Assembly: GCA_022821965.1 (NCBI GenBank)
Contig: JAJECN010000020.1
Span: 1 to 64,000 of the forward strand
Reading direction: 5' to 3'
DNA from: Candidatus Poribacteria bacterium
Lineage (GTDB): Bacteria; Poribacteria; WGA-4E; WGA-3G
DNA: 64,000 nucleotides
The notes beneath the pieces were generated by a model. That model did no database searches. It was given only the letters and a program-made list of their open reading frames with translations, and was not told the DNA's origin. Every line of letters starts with the position of its first letter. Within the stretch, counting starts at the first letter, position 1. Below, piece by piece: positions 24,693-39,980 of this stretch. The position numbers were made by a program, and so were the translations under genes.

Positions 24693-25487
24693 CTACCTCT
24701 GCCTTTTCAAATTACCCCACATCGTTGCCAATTTACCACGGGCAGAAACATCAAGAGTGTCATTGACAATCTTTTGGAGTTCGGCTTCAGAAAGCGCATA
24801 GTTGGCTAACATCAATTCATCAATACGCCCTTGAAAGAAACGTGGGCAACACCCGTTATTCTCACCACCGAACCGTAAGGGTTTATCCGCCCGACTCAGA
24901 CCCGGTCCCTTCTGTGCGATAGCGGTGCCGTCAGATTCCCCGTTGATATAGAAACCGGCTTCCTTCCCATCCCACACAACGGCAACATGGCTCCACTCTT
25001 TCGCTTTGATCTTGCCATCAGAAATATGGTAGCCTGGGCTACTGGTCTCGTAGAAATAGTAAGCGAGTTTCCCTTCTCCCGGTTCAATTTGCAGATAATA
25101 GGTGTTCTTGTAGAAGATAGTGAATTTGTTCTCCTGTCCACCCGCTGGCAGTTCGTCAGGATAGACCCACGCCATCATTGTAATGGCTTCATCTATATCA
25201 ATCTCATCGGAGTGTGCTACCTCTACGAAATCGGCTTTCCCAGCCGATCCGCCCATTTGCACGGCTTTACCGAGGATACCTTCAGCCCACTTGATATTTC
25301 CCGTAAATTCACCGACTAAACCAGCAGTATCCTCTTTACTCTGTTTCCCGTTACCTTCGTCGAAATGCCAGACATACAGTTGCTCACCGAGTTGTTTCAC
25401 GTTCCCTTTTCCACCCGCGGTGTACCCCGCAAAGCAGAGAGATAGACTTAGAAAAGCACATAGTATCACAAGCATCTGGGTTCTCAT
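24693..25487 (-). CDS. Secreted LamG-domain protein with KLATxWG tail
   Basis: The start is the ATG of MRTQMLVILCAFLSLSL, preceded by AGGAGG at eight bases; the longer upstream frame is not used. After a signal peptide, the LamG domain covers about residues 35-235 with LYVWHFDEGNG, VEVAHSDEIDIDEAITMMAW, EWSHVAVVWDGKEAGFYING and GRIDELMLANYALS. These are the normal LamG_3 landmarks. The end is ARGKLATMWGNLKRQR. It forms a leftward pair with the LamG gene at 25603-26382, separated by a hairpin terminator. Role and ligand are unknown. Confidence 0.85.
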   Translation of the reverse strand: MRTQMLVILCAFLSLSLCFAGYTAGGKGNVKQLGEQLYVWHFDEGNGKQSKEDTAGLVGEFTGNIKWAEGILGKAVQMGGSAGKADFVEVAHSDEIDIDEAITMMAWVYPDELPAGGQENKFTIFYKNTYYLQIEPGEGKLAYYFYETSSPGYHISDGKIKAKEWSHVAVVWDGKEAGFYINGESDGTAIAQKGPGLSRADKPLRFGGENNGCCPRFFQGRIDELMLANYALSEAELQKIVNDTLDVSARGKLATMWGNLKRQR

Positions 25488-25504
25488 CTGTGATTCCTCC
25501 TCAT

Positions 25505-25540
25505 AGAATGAAAAGAAGGACGGGTGCAAAACCCGCCCTT
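25505..25540 (-). terminator. Terminator between the two LamG genes
   Basis: On the minus strand AAGGGCGGGT and ACCCGTCCTT form a hairpin (25516-25540, one mismatch) followed by TCTTTTCATT. It would end transcription of the upstream LamG gene before the second one. Confidence 0.65.
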
Positions 25541-31125: not shown

Positions 31126-31416
31126 AATGTGCCTCCTCGTTGAAGCGTGCAGCTTGCAGATTCCCGAAATTTGCCATTATATTAGCATGCTCGCGAATTT
31201 GTGTCAACCGTTTGATTTGGAAGCCCAAAAACATTTTTGTGTTTTTACTTGATTTCCTATTCTCTGTATGCTACATTGATTATATAAACTCTATAATAGG
31301 CACTTGCTAGTTATCCATTAGGTGTTTATCCCGTTACAGGCTCTAGGGGAGCCTATAACAACAGATTGAGATACAACAATCCAATGTGCCAATTTTTATC
31401 ACACGAGGTAATAATT

Positions 31417-32058
31417 ATGAATAACAAACCGTATAGATTTCGGGGATATCCCCTTACGAAAGGTATTGCTAAGCAACTCATTTGCGAATTATACGCAGGA
31501 AAGGGACCATATCCTCTATCAGAAATCAGAGAAACCGTACGGCAGCACCACGAGGAGCATGGTGGATCTCAAGCACGAGGTAAACTGTCAACGCTCATCT
31601 CTAGAGCAATTACTGATTTGAGAGGTGCCGGACAGGCAAACAGTGAGACCACAGGCTTTTGGGAAATCTATACAGATTCCGAAGTTGACAATGGAGAAGA
31701 CATTCATTATCGAAAGACTATCGGATCGGGAAATAGTTCCGTCTACCTCTATTATTTCCCTATTTTTCGGCAACAGGCAAAAAGCCAAGGGGAATCTGTT
31801 TGGAAGTGCAAAATTGGCAAAGCTCAGGGTGAGCCTCAGGAACGAGTTGACCAACAAAACAACCCTCGTACAGGAATTCCAGAGGAACCAGTAATTGCTC
31901 TTGTTATTAAAACAGACAATCCAGATTCGTTAGAGAGGGCAATACATACAATCCTAACTGCACGTGGCAAACACATAGAGGAGGCTCCGGGAACCGAATG
32001 GTTTCTCACTAATCCAAACGAGGTGGAAGAAATCTGTCAATTTATAGACAATCAATAA
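31417..32058 (+). CDS. GIY-YIG/T5orf172-like nuclease-fold protein (tentative)
   Basis: The start is the ATG of MNNKPYRFRGYP with GAGGT seven bases upstream; an in-frame start at 31366 lacks one. The 213-residue product has an N-terminal wHTH-like region (residues 10-75) and a C-terminal stretch: SVYLYYFPIFRQQA, VWKCKIGKAQGEP, PVIALVIKTDNPDSLERAIH, APGTEWFL. The order Y-x-YYFP, K-I-G, R, E, E matches T5orf172/MUG113 members of the GIY-YIG superfamily. These act as DNA-cutting or DNA-binding proteins in mobile elements and defence loci. It faces away from the methyltransferase operon, from which it is 156 bases distant. Confidence 0.65.
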   Translation: MNNKPYRFRGYPLTKGIAKQLICELYAGKGPYPLSEIRETVRQHHEEHGGSQARGKLSTLISRAITDLRGAGQANSETTGFWEIYTDSEVDNGEDIHYRKTIGSGNSSVYLYYFPIFRQQAKSQGESVWKCKIGKAQGEPQERVDQQNNPRTGIPEEPVIALVIKTDNPDSLERAIHTILTARGKHIEEAPGTEWFLTNPNEVEEICQFIDNQ

Positions 32059-32214: not shown

Positions 32215-33690
32215 TTACAATAGCTGCCTATCTCCAAAGGGCAGTTTCGGGAGAATACCGGTAAAATAATCCTGTATCTGATAAATCTGTAGGCACGGCA
32301 TTGAGACTGTAAAACCTCCTGCATCTATCTGATAAGTGCCAGCCCGCCGGACCTCGTCTAACATCCCGCGTGTCGGTTTCCGAGTAACGACAAATACGCC
32401 TAAATCCGCCTTCGCATTCTGCATCGCTGTCCGAAAATCGCGAATCTGACTCAGTGTATAACCGCCGCCTTTGACCTGGGCGACCATTTTGCCGTACGCT
32501 TGTCTACCTTTTATCTTGCCGATCGGAAATGTGTACAAACCATCAATCCCACCATCTGCGACCTTCTTGGCATTTGATTTGAACTTCAACACGTGCGTGA
32601 CACACCACTCTTCAAAGCCGGCAGGATCCCTACGAGCAAGTGCTAACGCTGTGTCCGTATCCTCGGGCGTGCCGCTAACAATAACGCTGTCCCGTAGTTG
32701 TGGAAAAAACTTTTCAATTTGGTGTTTAACTGCCCCCGTCGCGAGATAGGTTAAATCTATCCCTATCCATTGCCTTCCTAATTCCTCTGCTGCCATTAAC
32801 GTTGTACCACAGCCACAGAATGGATCTAAAACAAGATCCCCCTCGTTTGACGAGGCTGCAACGATTCGCTTATACAAAGCAACAGGCTTTTGCGTAGGAT
32901 AACCGGTGCGTTCTTTTGCTTGTGAGTTTAGAAATTGAATATCGCTCCAAACCTGTCCCATAGCAGGATCTAACTTTTTTGTTGTTACAACTTTATCATA
33001 TCGCTCAAAATCAATTCCTGCCTGCTGCACCTTTTCCATATCATAGATCAGTAACTTTTTCACGCCTTTATCCACAACAGTATCCCATCCTTTTTCCTCT
33101 ACACTTGACTTTCTCCTCTCGGCATACTGAAAATTAAAGGTGTTCTTATTACCCTTTGAATAAAAGAAAATAATATCGTTCATACGTGCAAAACGTCGTC
33201 CTGAATTTCGAGAAAAGCGATGATAGTTCCAAATAATTTCGTTTTGAAATTGGGAAATTCCGAAAATAGCATCAAGAACAATTTTGAGATAATGACTCGC
33301 AGAAGGATCACAGTGGAGGTAAAGGGAGCCTGTGTCTTTGAGGAGCCGGTGCATCTCAACGATTCTGGCAGCCATCATCACGAGGTATGCCATCATCGGC
33401 GTTTCATTCAAGAATTGCTGTAGACCTTGAATCGTCGCGCCGATTTGCCCGCCTTCTTCAACAATCAGTGACTTGCAAGTATCTTCTGCGGCATCGCCCC
33501 ATGCCCAAGTATCGGTAAACGCCTTGACAAGGGCATCTGGTTGTTTTCCGTGTTCATCGCGGTAGGGTACGAAATAATCGCGTTTGGAATTGAATGGTGG
33601 GTCCGTGGCGATGAGATCGATGCATGCGTCTGGGAATTTCCGCATCTCTTCTAAGTTATCGCCCCGGATGAGAGTTCGGTTTTCGTGCAT
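32215..33690 (-). CDS. DNA methyltransferase (N4/N6, beta-type order) fused to an Mrr-like nuclease domain
   Basis: I choose the ATG of MHENRTLIRGDN, with AAGGA upstream, just after the previous gene's stop; the longer frame overlaps that gene. The 491 residues begin with motif IV (ATDPPFNSKRDYF, about residue 30). Motif I is downstream (LDPFCGCGTTLMAAEELG, then GIDL), the order of beta-class amino methyltransferases. After residue 370 the segment has GGIDGLYTF and later MVAQVKGGGYT, which fits the D...Q-x-K core of Mrr-like restriction folds. This suggests restriction and modification in one chain. The nuclease activity is inference; a specificity-binding role is possible. Confidence 0.82.
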   Translation of the reverse strand: MHENRTLIRGDNLEEMRKFPDACIDLIATDPPFNSKRDYFVPYRDEHGKQPDALVKAFTDTWAWGDAAEDTCKSLIVEEGGQIGATIQGLQQFLNETPMMAYLVMMAARIVEMHRLLKDTGSLYLHCDPSASHYLKIVLDAIFGISQFQNEIIWNYHRFSRNSGRRFARMNDIIFFYSKGNKNTFNFQYAERRKSSVEEKGWDTVVDKGVKKLLIYDMEKVQQAGIDFERYDKVVTTKKLDPAMGQVWSDIQFLNSQAKERTGYPTQKPVALYKRIVAASSNEGDLVLDPFCGCGTTLMAAEELGRQWIGIDLTYLATGAVKHQIEKFFPQLRDSVIVSGTPEDTDTALALARRDPAGFEEWCVTHVLKFKSNAKKVADGGIDGLYTFPIGKIKGRQAYGKMVAQVKGGGYTLSQIRDFRTAMQNAKADLGVFVVTRKPTRGMLDEVRRAGTYQIDAGGFTVSMPCLQIYQIQDYFTGILPKLPFGDRQLL

Positions 33691-33700
33691 AGAGGGTTCC

Positions 33701-34003
33701 TTATAGATACTTGAATCTCCCTGCTTGGACATCTTCAAGTGCTTCTTTGCACAGGTGATCCAACTTCCCGGCTTTCACATCTTCTTCAAACTGCTTCTCC
33801 CACGCTTTTTCCTCGGCAACTAAGGCTGTATGAAGTCTCTTTGCAAGAGTTTGCAGGAGTATTTTCTCTGTAGATTCCTCACACTTGACTTTTGGAACCT
33901 CAGGAATCCATCCCAGCCAACTTGTGCCCTTTTTTTGGATGTGTGCGGTATAAGTCTCCTCAAAGACCTTGTCCTGAATCTCGACCATTTTTATTTGTTC
34001 CAT
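33701..34003 (-). CDS. Small protein of unknown function, HicB-like N-terminus
   Basis: The start chosen is the ATG of MEQIKMVEIQ because GGGGAG lies eight bases upstream; a start at 34036 would overlap the previous gene by four bases. The 100 residues contain YTAHIQKKGTSWLGWIPEVP, a strand pattern like the antitoxin HicB or a small RNase H-like partner domain. It lies between the 34033-34458 gene and the methyltransferase in one operon. I do not recognise a definite family. Confidence 0.6.
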   Translation of the reverse strand: MEQIKMVEIQDKVFEETYTAHIQKKGTSWLGWIPEVPKVKCEESTEKILLQTLAKRLHTALVAEEKAWEKQFEEDVKAGKLDHLCKEALEDVQAGRFKYL

Positions 34004-34032
34004 GGTTTTCTCCCCAAGTAAGCCAAATTTTT

Positions 34033-34458
34033 TCATTGCTGTGCCCGTAACTTATGTTCCCAAGTTTTGGCGTTTCGGAAAAAATCAGGGTTCTCTGCCC
34101 ATGAGAGGGTCAATAACCATTTAGGGATATAAGCGATATCCATGCGTTTTTCTCGGTTCTGTAGATACCAACTTTCCAAACTTTGATGGATATCGGGGGC
34201 GAATTCCCGATTACTGCGGTATGCCCGGAGATCGCTAATGAGCTTTCTGCGGGTTTCTTTTTGTTGTTTCTTGAAACGCCAGCGAGCGGCATCACTCCGA
34301 AGATACTGTTGGCTATAGCGACGTTCTAAATTATAACGATGATTCCAAGAACGTCGTAAATCCTGAACAAGCCTGTCTTCAAAAGTTACCTTCTCGGGTA
34401 TCCACTCACCATCTTCAATACAGTTGAATTCGTAGAAAAATTCGTTATTCATTTTCAC
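34033..34458 (-). CDS. Hypothetical protein, first gene of the methyltransferase operon
   Basis: A GTG start with AGGAGA eight bases upstream gives 141 residues (MKMNNEFFYEFN...). It is basic in the middle (RRSWNHRYNLERRYSQQYL, FKKQQKETRRKL) and mostly helical. No known motif is visible. It overlaps the following small gene's open frame by four bases. Operon context suggests a role with the methyltransferase, perhaps DNA binding or toxin-antitoxin. Confidence 0.55.
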   Translation of the reverse strand: MKMNNEFFYEFNCIEDGEWIPEKVTFEDRLVQDLRRSWNHRYNLERRYSQQYLRSDAARWRFKKQQKETRRKLISDLRAYRSNREFAPDIHQSLESWYLQNREKRMDIAYIPKWLLTLSWAENPDFFRNAKTWEHKLRAQQ

Positions 34459-34639
34459 AATGGAATTCTCCTTTCTGAACTAAAGGGAAACGATTCAGTA
34501 ATTTGCTGTTGAAAAACTTAAGTTAATCATATCATAGATACTTCGAGAACGCAACCTTTTCCATGGGCATTTTTCAGTTATATGTTGTTAAATTCCGGCG
34601 CTTGTGATACAATGCAACGCAGCAAGATAAATCTTTCTC

Positions 34640-34866
34640 GCAGGAGCGTTATGTCAACTACCTCACCCTAAAGGGTGAGGCTTGTGCAAAGCGTAGCCAA
34701 ACGTTCCCTGCACAGGACGAAACAGTTTTCTACAGTAAAATATCGCGGTATCTTGGTGTGGTAGCCAGAGCAATGTTTCGGATGCTCCCCAAGTCTGATT
34801 CCTCTTGGATACTGTGATCTGGATGGGGCAACACACACCTTACATTTGTAAGAGGATTAGAAACTT
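34640..34866 (+). ncRNA. Candidate omega RNA of the IsrB locus
   Basis: The region just before the IsrB gene holds CCTCACCC (34661-34668) pairing with GGGTGAGG (34673-34680) around TAAA. It also holds TGTGCA (34683-34688) pairing with TGCACA (34709-34714), the layout expected for omega RNA scaffolds encoded upstream of IscB/IsrB. By family precedent the guide would be at the 5' end, near or before 34660. The exact ends are not visible. Confidence 0.5.
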
Positions 34867-35892
34867 ATGTTTGTTCCCACAAAAACTAAAGACACTCAAA
34901 CACTCATGCCAATGCACGCTGCCCGCGCTCGTAAACTCATAAAGCGAGGTGAGGCGACCCCGTACTGGGATAATGGCATCTATTGTATCAGACTCAATAA
35001 AGAACCTTCTAATAGAGAGACCCAAGCTATTGCGATTGGTGTAGACCCCGGCAGTAAAAAAGAAGGATTTACCGTCAAAAGTCAAGCACATACCTATCTC
35101 AATGTGCAAGCAGATGCCCACACAAAAGTAGGTAAGAAAGTTGAAAAACGCCGTGAGTTACGCAGAAGCAGGCGTTCTCGGAAGTGTCCGAACCGGAAAA
35201 ATCGCACCAACCGTCTTGCTAATAGAGAACGAGTGCCTGCTGGGACACGTGCGAGATGGGAATGGAAGCTCCGTATCCTTCAGTGGCTCTCGAAAATGTT
35301 TCCCGCCACACATATCTGTGTTGAGGATATTAAGGCAGAAACAAAAGAACGTGCGAAAAAGTGGAATCAATCCTTTAGTCCCTTAGAAGTGGGTAAGCAA
35401 TGGTTCTATACGCAGCTTCAGAAGCGATGGGAGGTGTTGACCCTCCAAGGGTGGCAGACCAAAGAGATTCGTGATAGACTCGATTTGAAGAAGTCTTCAA
35501 AGAAACTTTCTGAAACCTTCGATGCCCATTGTGTAGACAGTTGGTGTCTGGCATATCACACTGTCGGCGGTGAACCGACAGTAGAGAACACAGATTTGCT
35601 CTGCCTCTCGCCGATCCCAATCGTCAGACGTCAACTCCATCGTCAGAACTCACAGAAAGGTGGAAAAAGGCCCCGCTATGGTGGGACGACTTGCGAGGAT
35701 TTGGTGAAAAACACGCTCGTTAGACATGTCAAATATGGTTTGACGCGTATCAGTGGATTTGGCAAGGCAGGTATTTCGTTGTATTCATTGGGAGGAAACC
35801 ACCGGCTTTGCCAAAATGCGAAACCCTCAGATTTTAAGGTGCTAACACGTCTGAATTTCAACTATAGGAGCGGGATTTCCTCCTCGCGCTGA
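34867..35892 (+). CDS. isrB: IsrB-type RNA-guided nickase (RuvC without HNH)
   Basis: The 341 residues start with a PLMP-like segment (TLMPMHAARARKLIKRGEA). RuvC-I is AIGVDPGSKKEG with D60. An arginine-rich bridge runs about 95-130 (RRELRRSRRSRKCPNRKNR). RuvC-II is HICVEDIKAE with E153, and RuvC-III is DAHCVDSWCLA with H221 and D224. Only 67 residues separate E153 from H221, so there is no room for the HNH domain of IscB. The C-terminal RRQLHRQNSQKGGKRPRYGG matches the basic tail known in IscB/IsrB. Known IsrB proteins are about 350 residues and nick one strand guided by RNA. All RuvC residues are intact. TnpB is the main alternative, but the PLMP start argues against it. Confidence 0.8.
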   Translation: MFVPTKTKDTQTLMPMHAARARKLIKRGEATPYWDNGIYCIRLNKEPSNRETQAIAIGVDPGSKKEGFTVKSQAHTYLNVQADAHTKVGKKVEKRRELRRSRRSRKCPNRKNRTNRLANRERVPAGTRARWEWKLRILQWLSKMFPATHICVEDIKAETKERAKKWNQSFSPLEVGKQWFYTQLQKRWEVLTLQGWQTKEIRDRLDLKKSSKKLSETFDAHCVDSWCLAYHTVGGEPTVENTDLLCLSPIPIVRRQLHRQNSQKGGKRPRYGGTTCEDLVKNTLVRHVKYGLTRISGFGKAGISLYSLGGNHRLCQNAKPSDFKVLTRLNFNYRSGISSSR

Positions 35893-35901
35893 AGCGCGAG
35901 G
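35882..35901 (+). repeat. 3' terminal hairpin of the IsrB element
   Basis: CCTCGCGC (35882-35889) and GCGCGAGG (35894-35901) pair perfectly around TGAA. It overlaps the last codons of the IsrB gene and ends 20 bases before the dehydratase start codon, as expected for the right end of an IS605-family element. Confidence 0.7.
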
Positions 35902-35921
35902 TTTCCATCCCGAAGATTTTG

Positions 35922-37049
35922 ATGAAAATTGATAAAATTGAGTCGTTTTTTATTCGGAACGGCTATGTGATTCGGATTCATACGGACACAGGTATCAGCG
36001 GTGTGGGACAGACCGCGTGCTGGGGCTACCCAGAAGCCGTTGATAGTATCATCAACACGTTTAAGAAATACCTCATTGGGCAGAACCCGTTGCGGATTGA
36101 GCATCACTGGCAATATCTCTACCGCATGGGGCCGTTTCGTGGGACTGCGCTGAGCGGTGCTATTAGTGCGGTGGACATCGCATTGTGGGACATCAAAGGT
36201 AAATACTTCGGTGTTCCGATTTGGGAACTGTTAGGCGGGAACTGCCGTGATAAAATCCGTTTGCATCTTCTCGGCGGCGGGAGCACCCCAGAAACGATGT
36301 ATGAAGCGGCAAAAGCTGCCGTCGAAGAAGGCTTCACAGCACTCAAATTTGATCCGGTGGTCGGAAACTTCCAAGACATGGCAGTTGATCGACTCGTCAA
36401 GACTGCCCGTGATATTGTCGCTGCGGCGCGAGAAGGTGGCGGACCCGATCTCGATCTGATTGTAGAGGTGCACCGGAAACTGACACCTATGAACAGCATT
36501 GTGCTGGAATCTGCTTTGGCACCCTTTAATCTCTATTTCATTGAAGACCCGATTCAGATAGATACCATCACAACGCAAGGGGAATTAGCAAAACGGATGA
36601 CAACCCCTCTCGCCATCGGGGAACGCAATGTAAGCATCTGGGAATTTCGTGAAATCCTTGAAGCGGGCGGACCGCAATATGTGCGTCCGGATGTCGGTCT
36701 CGCGGGTGGTATAACGCACTGCAAGAAAATCGCGGCACTTGCCGAAGCGTATCACAGCGCGGTCATCACACATAATTTCCTCGGACCGCTGATTACTGCT
36801 GCATCACTCCACTTAGATACGAGTATCCCGAACTTCATTACACAGGAATATACGAAAGGCGATGAATCCGAAGACTTCGCCGTATATAAAGTCGCGTATC
36901 AACGAGAGGGGGGTTATATTCCGATCCCCGAAGTTCCGGGCTTAGGCATTGAACTTGACGATAGTTTAATCGAGCAGAACCCTTTCCAACCGATGAACAC
37001 TGGTACGACACCGCTGCGTGAAGACGGCTCCGTCGCTTACGCGGTATAA
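35922..37049 (+). CDS. Enolase-superfamily dehydratase (mandelate racemase/MLE type)
   Basis: The start is the ATG at 35922; the TTG just before it also fits. The 375 residues share the cap and barrel of the 11884-13020 protein: GAISAVDIALWDIKGK, FIEDPIQIDT, AIGERNVSIWEF and THNFLGPLITAAS with the catalytic His. The first metal ligand is glutamate, not aspartate, in IVEVHRKL (about residue 188), an unusual but tolerable change. There is no clear ribosome site because the IsrB element ends directly upstream, so expression may be altered. It starts a rightward group with two PhyH genes. Confidence 0.83.
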   Translation: MKIDKIESFFIRNGYVIRIHTDTGISGVGQTACWGYPEAVDSIINTFKKYLIGQNPLRIEHHWQYLYRMGPFRGTALSGAISAVDIALWDIKGKYFGVPIWELLGGNCRDKIRLHLLGGGSTPETMYEAAKAAVEEGFTALKFDPVVGNFQDMAVDRLVKTARDIVAAAREGGGPDLDLIVEVHRKLTPMNSIVLESALAPFNLYFIEDPIQIDTITTQGELAKRMTTPLAIGERNVSIWEFREILEAGGPQYVRPDVGLAGGITHCKKIAALAEAYHSAVITHNFLGPLITAASLHLDTSIPNFITQEYTKGDESEDFAVYKVAYQREGGYIPIPEVPGLGIELDDSLIEQNPFQPMNTGTTPLREDGSVAYAV

Positions 37050-37171
37050 CAGCAGTCAGCCATCAGCCAGAGAGCGTTGTGACCATCACAAACGATTACA
37101 ACTGCCACATGAGTGACTGACGACCGACAGCCGACAGCTGACAACTATTTATGAGGTGGAGGAAATCGAAC

Positions 37172-37972
37172 ATGAATGCTGACGAAAAATATCTATTTGA
37201 TCTGAACGGTTACCTCGTTGTCAAGAACGTGTTAACACCTGAAGAGGTGGCAATAGCGAATGAAGCGATTGATAAACATAGTGAGCAAGGACGCATCCGT
37301 CCACGCGAACAGGCACTTGATGGCGGCTCCCCGGAATTAAAAGGTGACCAGGGGAGAGGGGAACTCGGCGGTATGCTCAGCTGGGAAGAACCGTGGTGTA
37401 CTCCGTTTCGGCACATGCTCGCGCATCCGACACTTGTTCCATATCTCAACGAGATACTCGGAAAAGGCTTCCGAATGGATCATCAGATGTTCCTGCTTTC
37501 AATGGACAAGGGTGCAGAGGGGCATACGTTCCATGGCTCCTCCGGTCCTGGCTTCGATCCGAACCAATACTATATTTTCCGTGACGGACGCATGCACAAC
37601 GGCTTGACTGTCGTCACATTCCAATTGACGGATGTGCCACCCGGAGTCGGTGGATTAATCGTTATACCCGGAAGCCACAAGAGCAACTACCCGTGCCCGA
37701 AGAAGATGCGGCTCTACCAGGAACACCAAGAGCATATTCGACAGGTCGTCTGCAACGCTGGGGATGTGGCAATCTTCACGGAGGCGGTGACGCACGGAAC
37801 GCTTCCGTGGACAGCCGACCATCCGAGACGCTCCATTCTAACCCGTTATACCGCAGGCAATATGGCGTATGTCCCTGCCTATGAAATACCGGAATGGGCG
37901 AATGAGCGCCAGCGTGCTGTCATGGAACCACCTTATCATTCGCGATTAAATCGTCCCACCTTGGAAACGTAG
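37172..37972 (+). CDS. Phytanoyl-CoA dioxygenase-like protein, HGS subtype (tandem copy A)
   Basis: The ATG of MNADEKYLFDLNGY has GGAGG nine bases upstream; the ORF start at 37151 adds an unlikely leader. The 266 residues have GGLIVIPGSHKSNYPCPK and, near the end, AVTHGTLPWTADHPRRSILT with the distal His and the 2-oxoglutarate Arg. The expected H-x-D site aligns with FHGSSGPG, so the carboxylate ligand is replaced by Ser/Gly. That pattern recalls chloride-using halogenases in the same superfamily but is also the norm in a PhyH subgroup. It sits in a dehydratase cluster and is almost the same as the next gene. Confidence 0.82.
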   Translation: MNADEKYLFDLNGYLVVKNVLTPEEVAIANEAIDKHSEQGRIRPREQALDGGSPELKGDQGRGELGGMLSWEEPWCTPFRHMLAHPTLVPYLNEILGKGFRMDHQMFLLSMDKGAEGHTFHGSSGPGFDPNQYYIFRDGRMHNGLTVVTFQLTDVPPGVGGLIVIPGSHKSNYPCPKKMRLYQEHQEHIRQVVCNAGDVAIFTEAVTHGTLPWTADHPRRSILTRYTAGNMAYVPAYEIPEWANERQRAVMEPPYHSRLNRPTLET

Positions 37973-38087: not shown

Positions 38088-38888
38088 ATGAATGCTGACG
38101 AAAAATATCTATTCGATTTGAACGGTTACCTTATTATCAAGAACGTGCTAACGCCCGAAGAGGTAGCCCTCGCCAACGAAGCGATTGACAAACATAGTGA
38201 CCAAGCACGTCTCCGTCCACGCGAGCAGACACTTGACGGCGGTTCTGAAGAGCTGAGAGGCAAACAAGGTAGAGGTGAGCTCGGCGGTATGCTTGGCTGG
38301 GAAGAGCCGTGGTGTAATCCGTTCCGACACATGCTCGCGCATCCGACACTTGTTCCATATCTCAATGAAATACTCGGCATGGGCTTTCGTATGGACCATC
38401 ACATGTTCCTGCTTTCAATGGATAAAGGCGCGGAAGGTTTCATCTTTCATGGATCTTCTGGTCCTGGCTTCGATCCGAACCAGTATTATATCTTCCGTGA
38501 CGGACGTATGCACAACGGGTTGACTGTTGTCACTTTCCAGTTGACGGATGTCCCCGAAGGAGCTGGTGGATTAATCGTTATTCCGGGAAGCCATAAGAGC
38601 AACTACCCGTGTCCGCAAGAGATGCGACTTTACCAGGAACACCAAGAGCACATCCGTCCGCTCGTCTGCGATGCGGGGGATGTAATAATTTTCACGGAGG
38701 CGGTGACGCACGGCACCCTCCCATGGACAGCCGACCATCCGCGCCGTTCCATCTTAACGCGCTATACCGCAGGCAATATGGCGTATGTTCCTGCCTATGA
38801 AATACCGGAATGGGCAAACGAACGACAGCGTGCTGTTATGGAGCCTCCTTATCACTCTCGATTAAATCGTCCCGTATTGGAGACGTAG
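38088..38888 (+). CDS. Phytanoyl-CoA dioxygenase-like protein, HGS subtype (tandem copy B)
   Basis: The 266-residue product differs from copy A in scattered positions (e.g. QMFLLSM versus HMFLLSM; GHTFHG versus GFIFHG). It keeps FHGSSGPGFDPNQ, GGLIVIPGSHKSNY and AVTHGTLPW. The start follows ACCGTAAGGAAAG, a variant of the CCGCAAGG leader. Both copies end in the same SRLNRP-x-LET tail. The duplication is recent in appearance. The next gene, a diheme cytochrome membrane protein, begins 15 bases after its stop. Confidence 0.82.
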   Translation: MNADEKYLFDLNGYLIIKNVLTPEEVALANEAIDKHSDQARLRPREQTLDGGSEELRGKQGRGELGGMLGWEEPWCNPFRHMLAHPTLVPYLNEILGMGFRMDHHMFLLSMDKGAEGFIFHGSSGPGFDPNQYYIFRDGRMHNGLTVVTFQLTDVPEGAGGLIVIPGSHKSNYPCPQEMRLYQEHQEHIRPLVCDAGDVIIFTEAVTHGTLPWTADHPRRSILTRYTAGNMAYVPAYEIPEWANERQRAVMEPPYHSRLNRPVLET

Positions 38889-38903
38889 GAAGAAATAGCT
38901 AAC

Positions 38904-39980
38904 ATGTCTACTTCAACGAGCGCGATTCTTGGGTTAATCTTCTTAGGGCTTGCGAACGCCTCTGTTTTCTTGATGTTTAAGTTATGGGGTTACCCATTTG
39001 ACAAGGAGACACATAAGAGTGAAGCACCGCCTTCTTTGATGCTGCTCCATCGGCTCATCGGTTATGCGTATACGATCCTCTATGTCTTCATGATGTGGCA
39101 CATGGTGCCGCGCCTGTGGAACTACCAAGTCGAGTTGCCCCCGCGCACCGTAGCACATCTAATGCTCGGGATCACCATCGGTGTGTTGATTCTCGTTAAG
39201 ATCGTCATCCTTCGGTTTTTCCGGCATTTTGAGGAAGCAATGCCGTATATTGGTACAACGCTGCTGATTTGTACCTATCTGTTGATCGGGTTGTCGGTGC
39301 CGTTCACATTCCGCGAAGCGGCGTTGCGAACACAGACAATGGCATTCAGCGAGGAGGGGATCGCCCGAACACGCAGGTTACTTGAAAACGCTGGATTCCC
39401 GGAGGAAGCACCGCTTGATCAACTCGCGTCGAAGCGAAAATTGCGGGATGGACAGCACGTTTTACAACGTAAGTGCGTCGTCTGTCACGACTTACGCACC
39501 ATTCTCGCGAAGCCGCGTACGCCGACTGACTGGGTACGTCTCGTCAATCGGATGGCGATAAAGCCTATGATCGGTGAACCGATTTACCAAGAAGAAGAGT
39601 GGAGCGTCTCAGCGTATCTCATCGCGATTACACCCGACATTCAAACCTCGGTTCGGCAACAACGGCAAGCACAGATGCGCGCGGATGAAGCGAAGGCGGC
39701 TGCCCAAATCGTGACTTTCGTTATGGAAGCAGAGATGGAAGGTGACATTGAAACTGACACAACAACAGTCCCCTACGATGAAGTAGAAGCGAAAGCACTC
39801 TTTGAGGATAAATGTTCGCAATGCCATCCGCTCACCGATGTTGAAGACTATCCACCGCGTTCCAAAGCGGAGACAACCGAGGTCATAGCTCGAATGATAG
39901 AAACTGGGCTTTATCTTGAAGAGGAAGAGATAGAGATAATTACGCGCTATATCAACGAAAACTATCTGGAGAGTGAGTAG
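38904..39980 (+). CDS. Membrane protein with C-terminal diheme cytochrome c
   Basis: The 358 residues start with four to five membrane helices (ILGLIFLGLANASVFLMF; LIGYAYTILYVFMMWHMV; LMLGITIGVLILVKIVIL; IGTTLLICTYLLIGLSV). Several of their histidines could bind heme b (LHRLIGYAY, MWHMV). The C-terminal half has two heme-c sites, CVVCH (about 190) and CSQCH (about 308), in a periplasmic domain. It may pass electrons between a quinone pool and a periplasmic acceptor. It lies 15 bases behind a PhyH gene, so it may serve the same pathway. I cannot name the family. Confidence 0.75.
   Translation: MSTSTSAILGLIFLGLANASVFLMFKLWGYPFDKETHKSEAPPSLMLLHRLIGYAYTILYVFMMWHMVPRLWNYQVELPPRTVAHLMLGITIGVLILVKIVILRFFRHFEEAMPYIGTTLLICTYLLIGLSVPFTFREAALRTQTMAFSEEGIARTRRLLENAGFPEEAPLDQLASKRKLRDGQHVLQRKCVVCHDLRTILAKPRTPTDWVRLVNRMAIKPMIGEPIYQEEEWSVSAYLIAITPDIQTSVRQQRQAQMRADEAKAAAQIVTFVMEAEMEGDIETDTTTVPYDEVEAKALFEDKCSQCHPLTDVEDYPPRSKAETTEVIARMIETGLYLEEEEIEIITRYINENYLESE

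What the first reader, a model, noticed from the sequence alone, without database searches (positions are those of the whole stretch)
34625..35905. Intact IsrB-type RNA-guided nickase with a likely omega RNA
RuvC residues D60, E153, H221 and D224 are all present, the PLMP start is present, and there is no space for HNH. A structured region with two paired stems lies directly upstream, where omega RNA is expected. No tnpA is present, so the element depends on helper transposition or has been kept for another use. IsrB systems are less sampled than IscB or TnpB.
Basis: partly seen in the sequence, partly recalled or inferred. Interest (0 to 1): 0.75.

Follow-up and report, generated by a model that had tools for sequence, protein, structure and literature searches.

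The report
IsrB nickase element at gene start
This is an intact, small mobile element from a sponge-associated bacterium that carries an RNA-guided DNA-nicking enzyme (IsrB, a cousin of the ancestor of Cas9) and its guide RNA; it sits exactly between a gene's ribosome-binding site and its start codon, and its many relatives show how the enzyme's DNA-landing motif changes in step with two of its amino acids.

Summary
The 341-aa ORF (34867-35892) has all four RuvC residues and no HNH. Its best matches by sequence and by fold are DtIsrB (8dmb), not TnpB. The 214 nt upstream are a structured RNA homologous to HEARO/omegaRNA: 30 of 45 pairs have two-sided compensatory changes across 53 relatives.

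Empty sites in at least 16 sister species fix the element at 34653-35921 (1,269 bp, no target duplication), directly 5' of the ATGA start of a mandelate-racemase-like gene. So the TAM is ATGA (IsrB NTGA is known), and the guide is the gene's 5' leader, downstream of the gene's own promoter.

53% of copies sit at gene starts, against 6-7% of background ATGA sites. Natural flanks follow a two-residue TAM code: R/Q gives NTGA, R/R NTGG, Q/L or Q/F NTAA, Q/R NTAG. A right-end dinucleotide covaries with it, as expected for IS200/IS605 end-to-target pairing. TnpA elements in the genus share ends with one IsrB class, supporting mobilisation in trans.

The locus is a new member of a known kind. Start-codon placement and the NTAA/NTAG classes are the interesting part. 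Nothing was tested for activity.

The parts
34585..34613 (+). promoter-like sequence of the host gene (TTGTTA, 17 nt spacer, extended -10 TGATACAAT); a transcript from here would start about 34620 and carry the guide
   Evidence: read directly; the TACAAT is kept at most empty sites of sister species. Promoter function is inferred.
34633..34652 (+). predicted 20-nt guide = host 5' leader including the ribosome-binding site (CTTTCTCGCAGGAGCGTTAT)
   Evidence: immediately 5' of the left end; the same sequence plus ATGA is the intact empty site in sister species, identical over 30 nt in L133; no second guide+TAM site in the own genome. The guide length of 20 nt is taken from the DtIsrB structure (PMC9581776).
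34653..35921 (+). complete IsrB element, 1,269 bp, no target-site duplication
   Evidence: empty sites in at least 16 sister species; alignment of element ends
34653..34866 (+). omegaRNA (HEARO-like) scaffold; its second helix is also the left-end hairpin CCTCACCCTAAAGGGTGAGG
   Evidence: covariation on 53 sequences; Rfam RF02033 HEARO model 1-211 at 34653-34862, 17.1 bits, below gathering; relatives up to 38.5 bits, E 2e-4
34867..35892 (+). isrB gene, 341 aa: PLMP, RuvC-I D60, bridge helix (RRSRR), RuvC-II E153, RuvC-III H221/D224, TAM-interacting domain with R313 and Q316; no HNH
35882..35901 (+). right-end hairpin CCTCGCGCTGAAGCGCGAGG; the isrB stop codon (35890-35892) lies in its loop, 29 nt before the host start codon
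   Evidence: the loop sequence CTAAAG/CTGAAG is shared with the left-end hairpin and with hairpins of tnpA elements
35904..35905 (+). right-end dinucleotide TC beside the hairpin foot, complementary to nt 4 and 3 of the ATGA flank (IS200/IS605-type end guide)
   Evidence: covaries with the flank across the family; role inferred from IS200/IS605 biology
35922..35925 (+). TAM / insertion site ATGA; its ATG is the start codon of the interrupted gene
   Evidence: present once in empty sites; flank tally
35922..37049 (+). host gene: mandelate racemase/muconate lactonizing enzyme family, ORF intact after the insertion
   Evidence: Pfam PF13378, PF02746; ORF 375 codons from the ATG

Best explanation
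Window 34653-35921 is a complete, probably functional IsrB (OMEGA nickase) insertion element of an IS200/IS605-like, TnpA-dependent family in Candidatus Poribacteria. It landed directly 5' of an ATGA tetranucleotide that is the start codon of a mandelate-racemase-like gene, leaving the gene intact. The most likely working is as follows. (1) Transcription from the host gene's promoter runs through the host 5' leader (guide), the omegaRNA and isrB; this step is inferred. (2) IsrB binds the omegaRNA and nicks the non-target strand of DNA that matches the leader next to NTGA, that is, the empty site left after excision or present on an allele without the element. This favours restoration of the element; it is inferred from biochemistry of other IsrBs. 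(3) A Y1 transposase supplied in trans moves the single-stranded element. The right end chooses the same tetranucleotide by base pairing, so transposase target and nickase TAM stay matched; this is inferred from covariation. (4) The isrB stop codon sits 29 nt before the host ATG, so the host gene can be translated by reinitiation and the insertion is tolerated; this is inferred.
For: IsrB identity. OmegaRNA. Exact ends and empty sites. TAM ATGA, as for DtIsrB NTGA (PMC9581776). R313/Q316 have the same spacing as DtIsrB R323/Q326, which read nt 3 and 4 of the TAM. Natural changes at these residues follow the flank: pos1 R with G3 in 105/106, Q with A3 in 10/10; pos2 not R with A4 in 103/104, R with G4 in 11/12. 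The right-end dinucleotide follows the flank too. Shared ends with tnpA elements. Recent movement: identical copies at different sites. Gene-start enrichment.
Against: No RNA, nicking or transposition data. In the window copy two of the seven outermost omegaRNA pairs are mismatched, as in about 15 relatives. The HEARO match in the window is below threshold. No tnpA with NTGA-class ends was found in the own genome; its one canonical tnpA fragment has TTAC/AAAG-type ends. The AlphaFold model is of moderate confidence (mean pLDDT 66). Gene-start enrichment may partly reflect selection against other insertions.
Confidence: 0.88

Rival explanations
1. The element is a domesticated, RNA-guided regulator (like the TnpB-derived TldR proteins): the guide, which matches a ribosome-binding-site region, lets IsrB bind and repress the host gene or other gene starts.
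For: Guides are gene leaders in about half the copies; insertion next to dnaN is shared by two species (L074/L079).
Against: The RuvC residues are invariant, whereas TldRs are nuclease-dead (own knowledge). Copy number is high and sites are variable, with identical copies at different sites. In the window genome the guide has no second target, and the own site is interrupted by the element.
Confidence: 0.06
2. The element is a passive relic: IsrB no longer works, and the copies are moved only by a helper transposase.
For: Truncated and internally deleted copies exist (L004-L006); no tnpA with matching ends in the own genome.
Against: 341-aa ORF intact with all catalytic residues; protein and RNA structure conserved over 62-100% identity; TAM-reading residues track the flanks, which is not expected if the protein is idle.
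Confidence: 0.08
3. Gene-start placement is only the outcome of selection: the TAM ATGA happens to contain ATG, and insertions elsewhere are lost.
For: About 86% of the window is coding; insertions inside genes would be harmful; the TAM contains the commonest start codon.
Against: Even against permissive sites only, gene starts make up 49/84 observed versus 17-25% expected.
Confidence: 0.45
4. The protein is a TnpB or an IscB that lost HNH recently.
For: NCBIfam IscB model matches weakly (85 bits against a cut-off of 175).
Against: Best matches by sequence, profile and fold are DtIsrB; no HNH in any of 49 relatives; omegaRNA at the 5' side with the TAM at the 3' flank, opposite to TnpB.
Confidence: 0.02

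Closest known systems
DtIsrB (Desulfovirgula thermocuniculi IsrB, PDB 8dmb; PMC9581776)
   Same: PLMP-RuvC-bridge helix-TI architecture without HNH, length about 350 aa, omegaRNA 5' of the gene, TAM NTGA read by R323 and Q326 (here R313 and Q316)
   Different: 28% identity in the structural alignment; omegaRNA about 214 nt here against about 300 nt; here the TAM is the start codon of a host gene
BbIsrB (NTGG TAM; PMC9581776)
   Same: parallels the R/R class of this family with ATGG flanks
   Different: the window copy is R/Q with ATGA; NTAA and NTAG classes found here were not among the orthologues in that paper
HEARO RNA, Rfam RF02033
   Same: full-length match in register with the left end of the element
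   Different: scores are below the gathering threshold (17-38 bits against 83); protein without HNH
IS200/IS605 (IS608-type) insertion sequences
   Same: subterminal hairpins, no target duplication, tetranucleotide target matched by an end-borne guide, Y1 transposase
   Different: no tnpA in the element; orientation of isrB relative to the target-recognising end is reversed compared with TnpB elements

Membership tests
IsrB (OMEGA nickase) | RuvC with all catalytic residues, bridge helix, PLMP, no HNH, about 350 aa | tested here: met
IsrB (OMEGA nickase) | closer to IsrB than to IscB or TnpB | tested here: met
IsrB (OMEGA nickase) | omegaRNA scaffold directly 5' of the gene | tested here: met
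   covariation; HEARO homology
IsrB (OMEGA nickase) | NTG(A) TAM on the 3' side of the guide-matching sequence | tested here: met
   empty sites and flank tally
IsrB (OMEGA nickase) | RNA-guided nicking of the non-target strand | not testable with these tools
   needs biochemistry
HEARO RNA (RF02033) | covariance-model score above the gathering threshold | tested here: not met
   17.1 bits against 83 in the window; up to 38.5 bits in relatives; homology is clear but the curated cut-off is not reached
IS200/IS605-type element | hairpin ends, precise insertion without target duplication, target matched by an end guide | tested here: met
IS200/IS605-type element | own Y1 transposase | tested here: not met
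   none in the element; tnpA elements elsewhere in the genus share ends with the ATAA class
TnpB | guide on the 3' side, TAM on the 5' side, TnpB profile | tested here: not met
TldR-like regulator | loss of RuvC residues | tested here: not met

The most novel reading that the evidence does not exclude
Poribacterial IsrB elements are a start-codon-addressed family. They insert between ribosome-binding site and start codon, borrow the host promoter so that the guide is the host's own 5' leader, and leave the gene translatable. Their TAM has switched naturally between NTGA, NTGG, NTAA and NTAG through two residues (R/Q at position 313, Q/T/L/F/R at position 316, window numbering), in step with a dinucleotide in the right end that sets the transposase target. 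If so, transposase targeting and RNA-guided nicking coevolve as one address, and NTAA/NTAG IsrBs exist that could be tested directly.
Probability: 0.55. Interest if true: 0.68.

Novelty: new member of a known kind. Interest (0 to 1): 0.56.

Why it matters
Few IsrB systems have been characterised. This genus offers more than 100 natural insertions with exact ends and many empty sites, so TAMs can be read from genomes instead of from libraries. The flanks reveal a simple residue-to-base code for the TAM, extending the Q326R experiment on DtIsrB to a second position. They also suggest that the transposon end and the nickase domain are kept matched. Gene-start insertion would explain how a nickase element with no promoter of its own is expressed, and why it is tolerated.

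Tried and rejected
TnpB/IscB assignment: rejected by profile and fold. Domesticated regulator: no sign (invariant catalytic residues, variable sites, no second guide target). 'ATGA belongs to the element end': rejected by empty sites, where it is present once. Using the dnaN insertion as proof that an essential gene tolerates the element: dropped, because the genus has tandem dnaN copies. Automatic right-end detection by pattern failed for variable spacing; curated boundaries were used instead. Some ATGA copies scored 'CC' only through a one-base register shift; they were left as exceptions. L081, L043 and L077 are true exceptions to the flank/residue rule; in L043 and L077 protein and end agree with each other and only the flank differs. 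L050 (AGGA) and L072 (ACGA) were left out of the Fisher tests. Papers held here do not discuss IsrB and start codons; the 2009 HEARO paper is not held, and from memory it already noted ATGA/GTGA at insertion sites, so priority on the motif itself is not claimed.

Full report
IDENTITY. The ORF 34867-35892 (+) encodes 341 aa. Pfam gives RRXRR (1.5e-28). The NCBIfam IscB model matches only its N-terminal half and falls below its cut-off. The best solved relative is DtIsrB, 8dmb: E 8e-30 by single sequence, 9e-44 by profile, 1.7e-18 by fold. D60, E153, H221 and D224 are present and invariant in 49 relatives. Between RuvC-II and RuvC-III there is only a short linker. This is IsrB, not TnpB and not IscB.

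HOST AND FAMILY. All 80 best relatives in named genomes are Candidatus Poribacteria assemblies. The own genome holds three full copies (100, 86 and 73% identity) and several remnants. In relatives, 37 of 60 genomes have matches, with up to 22 matches each. I fetched and oriented about 110 copies. Copies that are 99-100% identical occupy different sites in one genome (L097/L098/L099; L106/L108/L109), which indicates recent movement.

EXACT ENDS. Alignment of copies gives a left end GTCAAC... and a right end ...GAAGATTTTG. I joined the two flanks of seven insertions and searched the genus for empty sites. The window site is found empty in at least 16 sister species. In the closest (94% over 263 nt) the junction reads GCAGGAGCGTTAC|ATGAAGATTGAT, against GCAGGAGCGTTAT|[element]|ATGAAAATTGAT in the window. 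In all, 14 distinct insertions have junction-spanning empty sites, covering ATGA, ATGG, GTGA and ATAA flanks. The element is therefore 34653-35921, 1,269 bp, without target duplication. The 3' tetranucleotide belongs to the target.

THE RNA. On 53 sequences covering the left end to the ATG, RNAalifold predicts 38 pairs, 25 with two-sided changes. With the outer helix added by hand there are 45 pairs. Of the cells, 94.3% pair (slid controls 31-43%), 30 pairs show two-sided changes, and the covariation score is 0.430 against 0.170 shuffled (0/500). Rfam HEARO aligns full length from the first element base (34653-34862) at 17.1 bits, below the curated 83; relatives reach 38.5 bits, E 2e-4. In the window copy two of the seven outer pairs are mismatched, as in about 15 others. 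The left-end hairpin CCTCACCCTAAAGGGTGAGG is helix 2 of this RNA, so it may serve both transposase and nickase (inference).

GENE-START INSERTION. The flank is ATGA in 81 of 103 copies, GTGA 9, ATGG 6, ATAA 5, others 2. The first codon of the flank opens a reading frame of at least 80 codons, with an upstream in-frame stop close by, in 53% of copies, against 6-7% of background ATGA sites. With a Shine-Dalgarno-like sequence as well it is 36% against 2-3%. Counting only starts and intergenic sites, 49/84 are starts against 17-25% expected, so avoidance of coding sequence is not the whole reason. The interrupted gene in the window is a mandelate racemase/MLE-family gene, intact for 375 codons. 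The left flank holds TTGTTA-17-TACAAT and GGAG, so a transcript from the host promoter would carry the host leader as guide, then the omegaRNA, then isrB. The isrB stop codon lies in the loop of the right-end hairpin, 29 nt before the host start codon, which is also the family median. Expression and reinitiation are inferences.

A NATURAL TAM CODE. DtIsrB prefers NTGA (TTGA at 60 C); R323 reads G3 and Q326 reads A4; Q326R accepts G4; BbIsrB uses NTGG (PMC9581776). The same R-x-x-Q spacing occurs here as R313 and Q316, in a strand of the C-terminal domain in the model. Copies with R/R have ATGG flanks, and copies with Q/L or Q/F have ATAA. I then expected Q/R to give ATAG before reading those flanks; the three Q/R copies all have ATAG, three new R/R copies all have ATGG, and one new Q/L copy has ATAA. 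Totals: position 1 R with G3 105/106, Q with A3 10/10; position 2 non-R with A4 103/104, R with G4 11/12. On a tree built without the motif columns, position 1 changes four times and A3 five times, but position 2 R only once, so the second association has little independence. These counts are not phylogenetically corrected.

TRANSPOSITION. The two bases beside the foot of the right-end hairpin are TC, CC, TT or CT where the flank is NTGA, ATGG, ATAA or ATAG. They are the complements of flank bases 4 and 3 (Fisher 6e-8 and 1e-11, with some register uncertainty). This is what IS200/IS605 end-to-target pairing would give (own knowledge). IS200-like tnpA elements in the genus (L246, L248, L253) begin TTAT|C(T/A)AATCTTCCGCTAC..., with the same hairpin as the reverse complement of the ATAA-class IsrB right end. 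That is direct evidence of shared ends for that class. For the NTGA class no tnpA with matching ends was identified; the only canonical tnpA fragment in the own genome has TTAC/AAAG-type ends.

VERDICT. The locus is a new IsrB member of a known kind. What goes beyond the known is the gene-start address, the natural TAM classes NTAA and NTAG, and the coupling of end guide and TAM-reading residues. All functional steps remain untested.

Noticed in passing
window 38874-38908: Empty site of a relative's IsrB insertion (L084, ATAA class): GGAAGAA|ATAGCTAACATGTC, just upstream of the ORF that starts at 38904.
   Followed up: yes
window 25476-25507 (- strand): Empty site of another relative's insertion (L121): GAGGAGGAATCACAG|ATGAGAACC.
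   Followed up: partly
L243 (G017:C2), next to L099: An IsrB element sits directly before the start codon of an IS200-like tnpA gene, inside an element with its own TTAT-flanked left end: a possible composite that could move isrB and tnpA together.
   Followed up: partly
L007 (G000:C47): The own genome has one IS605-like tnpA fragment beside a TnpB-like ORF, with a left end flanked by TTAC and an AAAG guide, as in IS608.
   Followed up: partly
L127, L074, L079, L130: Tandem dnaN-like copies occur in this genus; one copy carries an IsrB insertion at its start codon that is shared by two species.
   Followed up: no
window 32215-33738 (-) and 31366-32058 (+): DNA methylase fused to an Mrr-like domain, facing a T5orf172 (GIY-YIG type) ORF, with two small unknown ORFs at 33701-34458: possibly a defence island.
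   Followed up: no
window 37151-37972 and 38088-38888: Two adjacent, nearly identical ORFs (273 and 266 aa), a recent tandem duplication.
   Followed up: no
L004 (G000:C9:49901-49993): Internally deleted derivative of the element that keeps part of the isrB gene and the right end.
   Followed up: no
omegaRNA outer helix, alignment A2 columns 2-3 with 96-97: About 16 of 53 copies, the window included, have TTTTC instead of TTGAC on the 3' strand, breaking two pairs without other decay; reason unknown.
   Followed up: no
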